Made by a program: the position numbers and the translations under genes. Source: Cymodocea nodosa (lineage: Eukaryota; Streptophyta; Magnoliopsida; Alismatales; Cymodoceaceae). From it: DNA of 64,000 nt. Below, piece by piece: positions 46,915-60,802 of the stretch (positions are counted from its first letter, which is position 1; each line of letters opens with the position of its first letter). The notes under the pieces were generated by a model. The model was not told the DNA's origin and searched no databases. It saw nothing but the letters and a program-made list of their open reading frames with translations. The stretch spans positions 2,314,001-2,378,000 of the forward strand of contig CM072343.1 of assembly GCA_036874045.1 (NCBI GenBank), read 5' to 3'.

Positions 46915-48195
46915 TAGGAGTAGTGCTAGGACAGAAGATAGAAAAATCTCCTAGAATGATTCATTATGCAAGCAAAACTTTAAATGATGCTCAAGTTAAT
47001 TATACAACCACTGAAAAAGAACTATTAGTTATTGTGTTTGCCTTAGAAAAGTTTAGATCATATCTGATTGGAGCTAAAGTGATAGTATACACGGATGATT
47101 CAACTTTAAAACATGTAATAGCAAAGAAAGAGATTAAATCTAGATTGATCTAGTGGATATTGTTATTGCAAGAATTTGATTTAGAAATTAAAGATAAAAA
47201 AGGTTATGAGAATGTAGTAGTAGATCATTTATCAAGACTACAAATAGAAAAATCAAACATTAAAATTAAGGATAATTTTTCTAATGAACAATTAATGACC
47301 ATAAACACAATACCTTGGTATGCAAACATAGTTAATTACCTAGTTACTAGTCTAATACCTAAATATTGGAATAGACATGATAAGAAATTGTTATTGTTAA
47401 GAGTGAAATATTACTATTGGGAAGACCCATACTTATTTAAGAAATGTCCTGATTTGGTTTTAAGGAGGTGTATTCCAAAAATTGAATTTCAGAGCATATT
47501 GTCTTTCTACCATGATCAAGTATGTGGAAGACATTTTGGTTTAGGAAAAACTATTGCCAAAATTCTGCAATGTGGATTTTATTGGTCAATACTATTCAAA
47601 GATGCTCATAAATACTGCTTAAGTGTTTAAGATGTCAACAAATAGGAAAGATATCAAAGAGGAATATGATGCCTCTAAACCCTATTGTTGAGGTTGAAAT
47701 CTTTGATGTGTGGGGAATAGATTTTATGGGTCCATTTCCTATATCTAATCAATTTAATTATATATTATTAGGGGTGGATTATGTATCTAAATGAATAGGA
47801 GTTATTCTTACAAAAACTAATGACAACAAAGTGATAGTACATTTCATAAGAACTAATATAATTGCTAGATTTGGAATACCTAAAGTTATTATTAGTGATA
47901 GAGGAACTCATTTCTGTAATAGAAGTTTTGAAGCCTTAATGAAGAAATATGGAGTAAATCACAAAATTGCAATATTATATCATCTACAAATAAGTGAATA
48001 AGTAGAAAGTGCAAACAAACAAATTAAGTTAATCTTAGAAAAAGTAGTAAATCCTACTAAAAAAGATTAGGCTAATAGATTAATAGATACACTTTGGGCT
48101 TATAGAACTGCTTATAAGACAAGCTTAGGTATGTCACCTTTTAGGATAGTATATGGAAAATGTTGCCATTTACCAGTTGAAATTGAACATAAAGC
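46915..48195 (+). pseudogene. Gypsy family A pol: RNase H and integrase (dead)
   Basis: RNase H: YASKTLNDAQVNYTTTEKEL, VYTDDSTLKHV and DHLSRL. Integrase zinc region from about 47450 (FYHDQVCGRHFG ... CLRCQQ in shifted frame), core with DVWGIDFMGPFP, ISDRGTHFCNRSFEAL and E around 48005 (the catalytic region, with a stop in it), then AYRTAYKTSLGMSPFRIVYG and HLPVEIEHKAYW. These are diagnostic of the Athila group. Stops occur at 47151, 47629 (frameshift), about 47794, 47999 and 48069. The integrase C-terminus is missing: the text after KAYW is Lys/Glu-rich and leads into the env-like ORF. Confidence 0.92.
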
Positions 48196-49326
48196 TTATT
48201 GGAGGAAGAAGAAAGAGAAGAAGTTGAGTAGGAAGTTGAATAGGAAGAAAAGAATTTGATAGATTCCTTTGAAGAGAATGAAACTCTTTAGCAACTTATG
48301 GAGAAAATACAAGATAAAAGTGTGGAAAGTTCTGCAAGTTCTCCACCACATTTCAGAACTGAAAGGTAGGAATCTCTGGATTATTTTCAGCAATAATTAC
48401 AACAACAAGCTTAGCAACTTGAGGAAGAAATTTAAGAACAAACCCCTCTAAAGCAACAAATCCAAATTCCTGACCTGTCTAAAGCAACTATTTTAAATGA
48501 AGTTCACTTTCGGAGTCAGGAAGCATACAACAAGTATTAAAAGATAAAGATGTATGATATTATTTATAGTAGGCCAATAGATTGGACTAGAATGGAGGAG
48601 ATTAAAGAATTTTTCGAATTCTAGGGCCTACTGGACTTTATTCCAAAAGAAAAAGGGTATGTAATTTATGAAAATTTAGTGCCCTATTTTTATGCAAATT
48701 TAAGAGAGGAAGATGGAAAATTAATTGCAAATGTGGAAGAAGTTAATATTCAGATAACAATTGGGCTTCTCCGCAACATTTTTGGATTGAAAAATGAAGA
48801 AATTGAAATTTTGGAAGAAACAACTATAGTGGAATGGACTGAATAGGAAATTAAGTAGTGCATAGCTAGTGACTCTCGTGTGCCAATAATTTATAGAATG
48901 AAGTACTCAAATGGAAAGACACACATGGTGGCAACTATACTAGTGAAGACTATTTATCAAAGACAAGGCCACGACATTGAATTGAGTTAATTTGTCAAGT
49001 GGGCCACATATGTAGTTGTTAACAGAATACAAGTAAATTGGTTCAAAGTATTCATCTCCAAGCTCAAATCAGTAAAGAAAAAGTTATTTTATGGAGATTT
49101 AATTCCACTATTGATGGTGGAAGGAATTGACTTCACGAAATGGTCATCTAAGAGGATAATATCTAGAGCCATTTTAGTGAAGGAATATAGAAATTATAAT
49201 GCTGCTGCTTTTTCTATTGCTAGACCTTCTAGAGAATTTACAGGAATTGTAGAACGTATAAATCAATTAGAGCAACAATTAGAAAAGCTCTAGATGGAAG
49301 TAGATGAATTAAGGAAGAAAGACTAA
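48196..49326 (+). pseudogene. Gypsy family A env-like third ORF
   Basis: Acidic/Gln-rich start, then RSQEAYNKYKIKMYDIIYS, IKEFFEF.GLLDFIPKEKGY, LVPYFYANLREEDGKLI, FGLKNEEIEIL, VVVNRIQVNWFKVFISKLKS and KKLFYGDLIPLL. It ends with a coiled coil (ERINQLEQQLEKL.MEVDELRKKD) and TAA at 49324-49326. The same fold of motifs is in the copia third ORFs at 1797-4060 and 46197-46914. In Athila elements the env-like gene follows pol, as here. Several in-frame TAG codons. No evident signal peptide or membrane segment. Confidence 0.8.
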
Positions 49327-58348: not shown

Positions 58349-59400
58349 ATGACATATGCTTATGCTTAAAGATTTCTAAAACGTATAGTTAGCATATGTG
58401 AATTTTGCAATTTGGAAGGTCATGACATTTCTGATTGTTTGGAACCGAGACGATTGCAAATGATTAGATCACATGAACAACAAATGAATTATATTCAATA
58501 TAATAGAGCTGTGTATGAGAAACCTATATTTTACTCAACTAATGGTCAGTTTAGAATGTATAATATGTTGAGAGACAAAGAAGTTTGGGATAGGTATGAC
58601 AAACTAGAGCATAGCTTAGAGCAGAACATGGACAAACTAGAACAATACATGTGTCAGCAACAAGAAGTCAACCATAATGGAAGAATATTCAGAACCTAAA
58701 ATTGATATCATCTACGAAACTAAAAAAACCATAATGAAAATTGATCAAAAATTAAATGCAATGAGATTAGATGATTTGGAAAGAAAACTAAAAGCATTGG
58801 ATGAATTTACAATGAAATTACAAGTTATGCAATAGGAAAACACAAATGAAAACTTTAATGTTATAGATTTGCATAATTTGCAAGATATATAGACAAAAGA
58901 AAGTACCAATGCAATAGAATTTAAAGAATACAATTTAAAACTAAAAACAGTTGAAGATCATAACTATGAAAATGAAATACAAGAACATCATGAAAGTAAT
59001 GAGAATCTGGAAGATGTATATATAACATTAAGATCTGGAACTGATATACCACCAAGAATTCAAAAGGAAAGTAATATGAAGGTGGATAAAAACAAAATTC
59101 AAAATGATAATGAAAATGTAATATCTGAAAACTTAGAAATCAATGAAGACAAAACTGAATATGAAAATGAGACTAAAAATGATCAACCAAATGAAATGAA
59201 AGACAAAGAATCTTGTAAATCACAATTATTATCACCCTATCTTGAAAGATTACAACAAACATTTCTTGAGAAATAAGAAAAAATTAGAGAAATTTTTGAA
59301 AAAGTACAAGTTAACATACATTTGTTAGATTTATTGTAAAAAATGCCACATTGTGCTAAGTTTCTTAAGGATTGATGTACTAAGAAAATAAAGTGAAAAG
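58349..59400 (+). pseudogene. Gypsy family A 5' ORF: zinc knuckle and coiled coil, without capsid
   Basis: ATG at 58349, 80 nt after the primer site. Residues 17-30 are the knuckle CEFCNLEGHDISDC (CX2CX4HX4C). It is followed by RSHEQQMNYIQYNRAVYEKP and a coiled coil with KLEHSLEQNMDKLEQYM, and, after a frameshift near 58690, KPKIDIIYETKK-like text. LEDVYITLRSGTDIPPR (about 59010) is the LRSGK-like motif that precedes protease in Athila. An Asp/Glu/Asn-rich linker and SPYLERLQQTFLEK follow. There is a TAA early (58367, Gln in relatives) and further stops. The capsid domain normally N-terminal to the knuckle is absent. Confidence 0.85.
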
Positions 59401-60802
59401 TTTTAAGGAAAGTCTTTTTAGTTGAGCAAAGTAGTTCCCTATTTCTGCCACAAATTCCTAAAAAGTTATCTGATCTTGGAATTCCTGTTATATCATGCAC
59501 CATAGGAAATACCATTTTAGAAAGAACCTTAATAGACATAGGTGCAGGTATAAATGTTGTACCGAGTGATATATTTGCATCCTTAAGATTAGAAGGCTTA
59601 CTTCCTACTATGACTGTTATTCAATTTGCAGATAGAAGTATAAGATACCTTAGAGAAAAAATAGAGGATGTCTTAATTAAAATTAAGAACTTCATATATC
59701 CTATTGATACTGTGATTTTGGATTACCAACAAATTATGCATCAAAATCATGATACATTTTTAATTTTGGGTAGACTATTCTTAGCAACATCAAGGGTTGT
59801 TATAAATTGTAAAACTAGAGTGATGAACTTAGCATATGGTAATGAGGATACTCAATTAAACATTTTCAAACCAGAAAAGTTTGAGGAGTTAGAAATGTCC
59901 TTACATACTATAGACTTTTTAGAGGATGAAGGAGATATGCTAGATGATGTGATTCAAGAAGAATTAAAGAGGCAACTAAATTATGAAACTTTAGAAGTAA
60001 GTGAAAGGATAAATGTAGAAGGAGATCAAGAAGAGTTTAATATAGAAGATGAGAATGTTCAATTAGGAGCTCTAGCTTCTGATGGTCAACATTTAGATTT
60101 AAAACCTTTACCTCTTGAATTAACCTATATATTTCTAGAAGAAAAATGAACATGTCCAATCATTATTGCTTCAGATTTAAAAGAGGATCAAATTTCTAAA
60201 TTAAAAGATGTAGTAAAAACTTATAAAGAAGCAATAGGATGGACTATGACTAATATAAAAGAGTTAAGTGCAAATTTATGCTATCACCACATATATTTAG
60301 AAGAGAATACTAGACTAGTTAGAATTCCTAAGAGGAGATTAAATCCAAACCTTAAAGAAGTAGTCAGGAAGGAAATAGTGAAATAGTTAGATACTGATAT
60401 AATTTATCTGATTTCTGATAGCTCATGGGTTAGTCCAATCCATGTAGTTTCTAAGAAATCAGGATTAACAATTATTAAGAATGAAAGTTAGGACTTGATA
60501 CCTACTAGAATTCAATCAGGCTGGAGAGTGTGTATAGACTATAGAAAGCTGAATGTTGTGACTAGGAAAGATTATTTTCCCTTACATTTTATAGATCAAA
60601 TGCTAGAGAAATTAGTAGGGCAAGAATATTTTTGTTTCCTAGATGGGTATTTAGGATATAACCAAGTTCCAGTAGTATTAAAGGATCAAGAGAAAACAAC
60701 TTTCACCTGTCATAATGGAACTTATGCTTTTAAGAGAATGTCATTCAGATTATGCAATGCACTAACCACCTTTCAATGGTGTATGAAGGGCATATTCCTA
60801 TA
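59401..60802 (+). pseudogene. Gypsy family A protease and reverse transcriptase start (truncated)
   Basis: Protease: LSDLGIPVISCTIGN, then LIDIGAGINVVPSDIF (catalytic D-[ST]-G seen as D-I-G-A, as in Athila, near 59535-59550), and LILGRLFLATSRVVIN. The linker is acidic. RT: VSPIHVVSKKSG, WRVCIDYRKLNVVTRKD, FIDQMLEKLVGQEYFCFLD and GYNQVPV. The YxDD box would come later but is missing, because the sequence switches at about 60802 to minus-strand copia gag. Longest open stretches are 59610-60149 and 60495-60803. Confidence 0.92.

What the first reader, a model, noticed from the sequence alone, without database searches (positions are those of the whole stretch)
46915..60802. Athila-like gypsy family with the gag capsid moved to the 3' end, away from its zinc knuckle
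Seen: three independent 5' ends (58244-58700, 29805-29912 and 27399-27506 on the minus strand) run LTR, tRNA-Asp primer site, about 80 nt leader, then directly a CX2CX4HX4C knuckle ORF, coiled coil, LRSG motif and protease, with no capsid domain. The capsid ORF (retrotransposon gag motifs) is found elsewhere in three copies. In the longest contiguous copy it lies after RNase H, integrase and the env-like ORF (46915-51645). The 3' cassette that follows it there (53880-54033) also precedes the polypurine tract and LTR at 18801-18812. Known: Athila/Tat gag has capsid then knuckle at the 5' end. Inference: a family-level order LTR, knuckle, PR, RT, RH, INT, env-like, capsid, F-box, PPT, LTR. If true, capsid would be made from a separate unit.
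Basis: partly seen in the sequence, partly recalled or inferred. Interest (0 to 1): 0.9.

Follow-up and report, generated by a model that had tools for sequence, protein, structure and literature searches.

The report
Retrotransposons with capsid behind integrase
In this plant genome a group of abundant virus-like jumping elements carries its capsid (shell) gene behind the replication enzymes instead of in front of them, an order not described for this class of element in the papers we could search, which suggests that the shell protein is made separately.

Summary
The window lies in a 374.6 Mb plant-like assembly. One full-length copy of its family (C8; target duplication ACAGT; LTRs 91% identical) reads LTR, tRNA-Asp-type primer site, knuckle region, protease, RT, RNase H, integrase, 'env-like' ORF, capsid, F-box ORF, polypurine tract, LTR. 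A C16 copy has the same order but a broken 3' LTR. Related families also have capsid behind integrase: B, C and E, each read in part, and D, seen only as coordinates. Of 308 scored gag places, 108 have an integrase hit within 2.5 kb upstream. One has an integrase 1.5-7 kb downstream, but also one 1.0 kb upstream. The other places are uninformative. None of 112 knuckle-protease hits has one of these gags within 4 kb upstream. Capsid dN/dS is 0.04-0.25 in family C, similar to integrase: selection kept it. In family A a TATA box, and a run starting inside a 5' splice site, are among four invariant runs in 11 copies, hinting at a separate capsid transcript (inferred; no RNA seen). The 'env-like' ORF has no env support. 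Host species and spread beyond this genome are unknown.

The parts
46915..48202 (+). RNase H and integrase (partial) of the 3' part of a family A copy
   Evidence: tblastn RT_B 46905-47168 61%, INT_B 47711-48202 65%; same-family INT frame = PF00665
48201..49326 (+). C-terminal part of the 'env-like' ORF (not shown to be env)
   Evidence: homologous in 8 of 10 fetched capsid loci; PF20167 E 0.0021 and 0.042, below cut-off; dN/dS median 0.21 for the C-terminal piece
49327..50389 (+). spacer in front of capsid
   Evidence: all or part present in 10 of 10 capsid loci; palindromic modules
50114..50123 (+). TATA box ATTATAAATA
   Evidence: one of four invariant runs of 8 nt or more in 11 copies; position
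50258..50328 (+). candidate 5' UTR intron of the capsid unit (GTATGT...TTAG)
   Evidence: TATGTAATTAAT at 50259 and ACTTTATGTTAAGAGTTT at 50285 invariant in 11 copies; full GTATGT in 10 of 11; splicing inferred
50390..51650 (+). capsid ORF (Retrotrans_gag core and NPNWRNHxNLSW linker, no strict zinc knuckle); decayed in this copy
   Evidence: tblastn with CA_A/CA_B/CA_C; Pfam on L028 copy E 4.7e-13; knuckle absent
51800..51857 (+). candidate short intron in front of the F-box ORF
   Evidence: GT kept in 13 and final AG in 11 of 14 aligned copies; not among invariant runs
51870..53007 (+). F-box ORF
   Evidence: PF00646 E 1.4e-9 in L028 copy, 4.5e-8 in L034 copy
53041..54034 (+). 3' tail, with a polypurine-like tract at 53520
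54035..55265 (+). 3' LTR lacking its first 722 nt
   Evidence: 84.6% to 56977-58217
56255..58243 (+). 5' LTR of an independent second copy
   Evidence: TG...CA ends as in the C8 copy
58244..59040 (+). primer site region (TGGCACC from 58251), leader, zinc knuckle at 58397 (CEFCNLEGHDISDC), LRSG at 59028; no capsid found
59041..60810 (+). protease and start of reverse transcriptase
   Evidence: tblastn ZKPR_B 59190-59771, RT_B 60198-60800
6300..8446 (+). second capsid + F-box copy
14584..17824 (-). third copy (capsid linker, F-box piece) split by a solo LTR at about 15153-17182 with a 5-nt duplicated target
17826..19445 (+). 3' end of another copy: cassette, polypurine tract 18798-18811, LTR from 18812
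26723..27506 (-). second 5' end (PBS region, leader, knuckle region without the strict motif)
29580..29912 (-). third 5' end, only 333 nt, with the knuckle

Best explanation
A group of Athila-like Ty3/gypsy LTR retrotransposons in this plant genome has its capsid gene behind integrase. The 5' ORF after the primer site encodes knuckle, protease, RT, RNase H and integrase. Capsid follows integrase directly (families B, C, E and the hits called D) or after a further ORF (family A, which also carries an F-box ORF behind capsid). Shown: order, LTR/TSD frame of one copy, selection on capsid in A and C. Inferred: the genomic RNA makes the knuckle-Pol protein, and capsid comes from its own transcript (in family A from an internal TATA promoter with a short 5' UTR intron), so that the amount of capsid no longer depends on one gag-pol polyprotein; the two parts meet again in the particle, with the 5' knuckle binding RNA.
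For: Full-length C8 copy with TSD ACAGT; C16 copy in the same order. Family B: 5' LTR 1152-1157 bp before knuckle-protease in 4 copies, 3' LTR 3810-3843 bp after capsid in 3 others (40 LTR, 137 capsid and 16 of the 112 knuckle-protease places entered). 108 of 308 gag places have an integrase hit <=2.5 kb upstream. 0 of 112 knuckle-protease hits have one of these gags <=4 kb upstream, 53 have one 2-9 kb downstream; 34 ordered triples. Family E: primer site, knuckle 206 nt later, LRSG, no capsid; in the same C14 element integrase lies in a 1491-aa open frame and a gag match overlapping a 489-aa open frame, with 2 stops inside the match, lies downstream. Capsid dN/dS 0.04-0.25 in 9 defined of 10 family C pairs, integrase 0.09-0.34; family A capsid median 0.31. 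Conserved TATA box and splice-site run. Capsids of A, B, C group apart from 8 database capsids, 98/97.
Against: No RNA or protein evidence. Only one copy with both LTRs and a matched target duplication was read. One of 3 fetched 5' ends (L029/L030) shows no capsid in 18 kb. 200 of 308 gag places had no integrase nearby in the scored lists, so elements of the usual order may be missed; no gag-before-integrase pair turned up for any lineage, so there is no positive control. Internal-promoter evidence is for family A only; one of 11 copies has lost the GT. Family B keeps a second knuckle in the 3' gag. Single pairs in family A exceed dN/dS 1.
Confidence: 0.8

Rival explanations
1. The apparent order is a junction of two elements (nested insertion, tandem or misassembly) and capsid belongs to a second element's 5' end.
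For: The window interval does hold two partial copies, and nested insertions are common here.
Against: One target duplication encloses the whole order in C8. The integrase-capsid distance is 402-528 bp in 70 of 76 pairs on many chromosomes. The last 2.4 kb of the family B LTR has no match in that gap (the LTR is longer), and family B LTRs flank the set at fixed distances.
Confidence: 0.03
2. The 3' capsid is an accessory or duplicate; the working capsid comes in trans from elements of the usual order, or the 5' ORF has an unrecognised capsid.
For: The gag lists are partial (308 places from thousands of candidates). Non-autonomous Athila elements under purifying selection are known (PMC2410132, abstract and passages).
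Against: Strong purifying selection on the 3' capsid. No capsid match in the 5' stretches of A, B, E that were examined. In family E only 206 nt separate primer site and knuckle. No clear usual-order place among those scored.
Confidence: 0.12
3. Capsid is made from a spliced subgenomic RNA started in the 5' LTR (as env is in retroviruses), not from an internal promoter.
For: T-rich AG sites precede capsid in families B and C (read by eye); barley BARE makes a spliced Gag-only RNA (PMC3735527, abstract).
Against: In family A the TATA box is among four invariant runs of the spacer, and a TATA-like run is the longest invariant run in front of the env-like ORF in 5 copies.
Confidence: 0.35

Closest known systems
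Athila clade of Ty3/gypsy (Athila4, Calypso, Diaspora)
   Same: tRNA-Asp-type primer site a few nt after the LTR, CX2CX4HX4C knuckle, LRSG motif before protease (recalled and seen in P0076), RT-RNase H-integrase order, 5-bp target duplication (recalled), extra ORF behind pol
   Different: Athila, Calypso and Diaspora have gag and pol in one ORF, gag first (PMC1142308 passages); here capsid is behind integrase and the first ORF starts at the knuckle
Retand (Tat) elements
   Same: long region with extra ORFs between pol and 3' LTR (PMC11963269, abstract)
   Different: there the extra ORFs are antisense, mostly TRP28-type; here sense, and one is the capsid
BARE (Ty1/copia) with spliced Gag-only RNA
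   Same: capsid supplied from an RNA distinct from the genome (PMC3735527, abstract; only inferred here)
   Different: one open reading frame with gag at the 5' end (gag position recalled); splicing, not gene order, does the separation
Foamy viruses (recalled, not looked up)
   Same: internal promoter for downstream genes
   Different: gag is first and read from the LTR

Membership tests
Athila clade / Ty3-gypsy | domain order GAG-PROT-RT-RH-INT | tested here: not met
   capsid behind integrase; definition from PMC6317226 section 6
Athila clade / Ty3-gypsy | PROT-RT-RH-INT order of the pol part | tested here: met
   families A and B
Athila clade | tRNA-Asp primer site a few nt behind the LTR | tested here: met
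   family B TGGCGCCGTTGCCGGG exact, E one mismatch, A decayed forms; that this motif is tRNA-Asp is recalled, tRNA-Asp use from PMC1142308
Athila clade | 5-bp target duplication, TG...CA LTRs | tested here: met
   one copy, C8, ACAGT
Athila clade | knuckle and LRSG motif in front of protease | tested here: met
   families A and E LRSG, B MRSG
Athila clade | placement in an RT tree with reference elements | not tested
   no named reference RT set was used
Tat (Ogre, Retand) | additional RNase H domain (aRH) | tested here: inconclusive
   only the usual RNase H seen in the pieces scanned
plant env-carrying Athila | envelope-like ORF behind pol | tested here: inconclusive
   ORF present and selected but no env domain in the pieces scanned; PF20167 below cut-off

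The most novel reading that the evidence does not exclude
A radiation of autonomous plant LTR retrotransposons has made capsid an independent gene behind integrase with its own promoter and splicing, leaving the RNA-binding knuckle fused to Pol. Gag supply is thus uncoupled from Gag-Pol translation; one family adds an F-box protein from the same 3' unit that may act on host silencing.
Probability: 0.42. Interest if true: 0.92.

Novelty: new variant of a known kind. Interest (0 to 1): 0.85.

Why it matters
Gag-first order is treated as fixed in LTR retrotransposons and retroviruses. The reference survey of plant elements removed every element with domains in unexpected order as likely mispredicted (PMC6317226 section 6), so this architecture would be filtered out by design. 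It offers a natural test of how single-ORF plant gag-pol elements make excess capsid, and of whether knuckle and capsid must be one protein for RNA packaging.

Tried and rejected
Species identification failed: a beta-adaptin-like exon gave matches of up to 87% to various flowering plants without a clear nearest one, and 7 matK fragments were found but no protein search was left. Family B target duplications could not be read: its LTR is longer than 2.38 kb. Rows dropped: L034 (misaligned) and L009 (truncated) of 13 rows before the count, and L015 there in the last 70 columns; 3 of 7 targets before env-like and 4 of 13 in the tail (under 60% covered); only 4 of 14 A, 2 of 3 B and 3 of 5 C copies entered the tree. 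L029/L030 shows no capsid within the 18 kb fetched, a result against, probably truncation. Strict knuckle motif: 4 of 8 family A 5' ends (2 of 3 in the window, 2 of 5 fetched). Pre-F-box splice sites are not among the invariant runs. dN/dS in family B (3 pairs, dS 0.03-0.04) says little. A positive control for the usual gag order was sought with PF00665 and none was found. A gag 8.4 kb upstream of an integrase (C3) is too far for the usual order and was not followed. The last search, with the family E 5' ORF, did not complete. Literature searches.
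Full report
What was claimed.

In the window. Self-comparison and reading confirm the pieces. The interval holds two partial copies of one family (here family A): a 3' part, 46915-55265, and an independent 5' part, 56255-60810. Three 5' ends without a capsid match exist (58243+, 27506-, 29912-). 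Capsid exists in three places, one of them (17320-17824, -) only as its C-terminal linker. Open frames of the same family in other copies match Retrotrans_gag (E 4.7e-13), F-box (E 1.4e-9) and integrase rve (E 9.4e-15). The env-like ORF shows no env domain in the pieces scanned, only sub-threshold matches to PF20167 'putative plant transposon protein' (E 0.0021 and 0.042).

One element, not two. The window is C15:2314001-2378000 of a 374.6 Mb assembly. A DNA search with the capsid scored 40 of 4417 candidates; I fetched both flanks of 10 of the 39 hits outside the window. All or part of the spacer precedes capsid in 10 of 10, the env-like ORF in 8 of 10, pol pieces in the same orientation in 3 of 10; the tail follows in 8 of 10 and an LTR start about 4.4 kb downstream in 7 of 10. 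Of the 39 5'-end hits outside the window, 3 were fetched: two run on through the env-like ORF to capsid, one (L029/L030) loses the homology inside the env-like ORF. The copy on C8 has both LTRs (91% identical over 2057 columns; K2P 0.097, 163 transitions and 20 transversions), TG...CA ends and the same 5 bp, ACAGT, on both sides. Between them lie, in order, primer site, knuckle region, protease (split by a nested 3.4-kb TG...CA insertion with its own duplication GAGGA), RT, RNase H, integrase, env-like ORF, spacer, capsid, F-box ORF, tail, polypurine tract. The C16 copy has the same order with a broken 3' LTR. The strict knuckle motif is readable in 4 of 8 family A 5' ends; the others align there but are decayed.

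Not one family. The 8 best gag hits of a Pfam search were read with flanks: in 7 of 8 an integrase stretch 68-70% identical to family A stands upstream, and frames show gag behind integrase. Family B (L035-L002-L036) has an exact TGGCGCCGTTGCCGGG primer site, a 1.15-kb leader without capsid, a knuckle-protease ORF, RT, RNase H, integrase, and then a capsid-knuckle-linker reading frame with one stop in this copy. Family C (L001, L003-L006) was read only from integrase to gag. 'D' (44-49% to the family B capsid) was not read; it and E are named from identity bands of hits. Coordinates of scored hits give the wider picture. 75 of 137 capsid hits have an integrase hit (138 scored) upstream within 5 kb; 70 of the 76 pairs are 402-528 bp apart. 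Of 112 knuckle-protease hits, 53 have capsid 2-9 kb downstream, 35 of these at 3.61-3.73 kb, and 0 have a listed capsid within 4 kb upstream; 34 sets of knuckle-protease, integrase and capsid stand in this order on one strand. Pooling three gag lists (308 places) with two integrase lists (245 places), 108 have an integrase within 2.5 kb upstream and 1 has one 1.5-7 kb downstream; that gag (C19:4260749) also has an integrase about 1.0 kb upstream (C19:4259457). The other 200 have no integrase nearby in the scored lists and say nothing. A gag-before-integrase pair was found for no lineage, so the method lacks a positive control. Family B LTR matches that run into the leader stand 1152-1157 bp before the knuckle ORF in 4 copies; LTR matches that end at the LTR stand 3810-3843 bp behind capsid in 3 other copies (with 40 LTR places, 137 capsid places and 16 of the 112 knuckle-protease places entered). 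In a search with the classical gag P0005, 27 pairs of rve and gag (families B, D and E mixed) have gag 1107-1213 bp behind rve and none the other way. 12 of 150 scored rve hits lie in open frames of 1469 aa or more; 4 of the 12 have a listed gag behind them. These gag matches overlap open frames of 446-489 aa but also contain 1 or 2 stops each, so whether gag is intact there is open. One such family E 5' end, 800 nt, reads primer site (one mismatch), knuckle CSYCHVKGHDESIC 206 nt later, LRSG, and no capsid (best capsid match E 0.65). For scale, the single Diaspora gag-pol ORF has 1892 codons (PMC1142308); about 400 fewer here is what a missing capsid would leave.

Functional. dN/dS (Nei-Gojobori, my script) between family C copies is 0.04-0.25 for capsid in the 9 defined of 10 pairs and 0.09-0.34 for integrase in 10 pairs. 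In family A the medians are 0.31 capsid core, 0.47 capsid linker, 0.39 and 0.48 F-box, 0.21 and 0.41 env-like, 0.31 integrase, 0.43 RNase H, 0.42 protease; single pairs go above 1. So capsid, F-box and env-like ORFs were kept by selection in this position. Capsids of A, B and C form one group against 8 database capsids (98/97); the tree has 17 rows, near-copies included, the root is unknown, and family A rows fill under half the columns.

How it may be expressed. In 11 family A copies the roughly 500 bp before capsid have four invariant runs of 8 nt or more: ATTATAAATA (50114), TATGTAATTAAT (50259, starting at the T of GTATGT), ACTTTATGTTAAGAGTTT (50285) and TAGGAACCA (50048); the whole GTATGT is kept in 10 of 11. 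This looks like TATA box, exon, 5' splice site and intron. A TATA-like run is also the longest invariant run before the env-like ORF (5 copies), and an intron-like GTA(A/T)GTA...ATACAG lies before the F-box start codon (GT in 13, AG in 11 of 14 copies; neither is in an invariant run). These are sequence inferences; no RNA was available. For families B and C, T-rich AG sites before capsid would fit splicing from the LTR transcript equally well. How translation of the 3' gag starts is unsettled: an NRLVR-like stretch lies upstream of the first shared methionine.

Against what is known. PMC6317226 (section 6 and passages read) gives the Ty3/gypsy order as GAG-PROT-RT-RH-INT for 8453 elements and says that elements with domains in unexpected order were in every case removed as likely mispredicted. 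PMC1142308 (passages) states that Athila, Calypso and Diaspora have gag and pol in one ORF. PMC2410132 (abstract, passages) has gag before RT in the table row that I saw, and describes recombination between Athila families, a plausible source of the move. PMC11963269 (abstract) describes antisense extra ORFs behind pol in Retand. PMC3735527 (abstract) shows a spliced Gag-only RNA in BARE. Among database proteins, P0076 carries knuckle, linker, LRSG and protease in one chain, and P0005 carries capsid, knuckle, linker and an LRLG form of that motif, which fits the classical order. My searches for a described gag-behind-pol order showed none in their listings; the library lacks most subscription journals, and most listed papers were not opened.

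Verdict. The order is real, recurs in related families, lies in a TSD-bounded copy of family A and is under selection. It works like a Ty3/gypsy element of the Athila type but fails the gag-first criterion, so I call it Athila-like and a new variant. The separate transcription unit is likely but unproven.

Noticed in passing
window 49792-49919, 51754-51798, 56870, 57932-57992; L034:745-876: A palindromic motif AACTCAACGGA/TCCGTTGAGTT recurs in the LTR and before the downstream ORFs of family A; 30 matches with up to one mismatch in the window against 0.69 expected; none in the six family B and C loci L035, L002, L001, L006, L007, L008, some in a family A-like LTR end of L004. Possibly a shared regulatory module.
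   Followed up: partly
window 51870-53007: F-box ORF inside the element, under purifying selection; a literature search on F-box with Athila listed 7 papers, none opened, with no such element in titles or abstract starts.
   Followed up: partly
window 53520: A second polypurine-like tract (GGTATGGGGGGAGG) inside the tail, besides the one next to the LTR in other copies.
   Followed up: no
window 34769-35494: Exon of a host gene like beta-adaptin-like protein A.
   Followed up: partly
window 20125-24214: Copia-type element with gag, integrase and RT frames of 148-334 aa.
   Followed up: no
L033, L037 (C8): LTR pair differences are 163 transitions to 20 transversions, as expected from decay of methylated cytosines; ages from LTR divergence would be overestimated.
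   Followed up: partly
family B, L002 about 2083-2124: Family B keeps a knuckle in the 3' gag (CEGCGLDNHSIDQC, 2 of 2 copies examined) and another in the 5' ORF; 6 family A and 5 family C 3' gags examined have none by the strict motif.
   Followed up: partly
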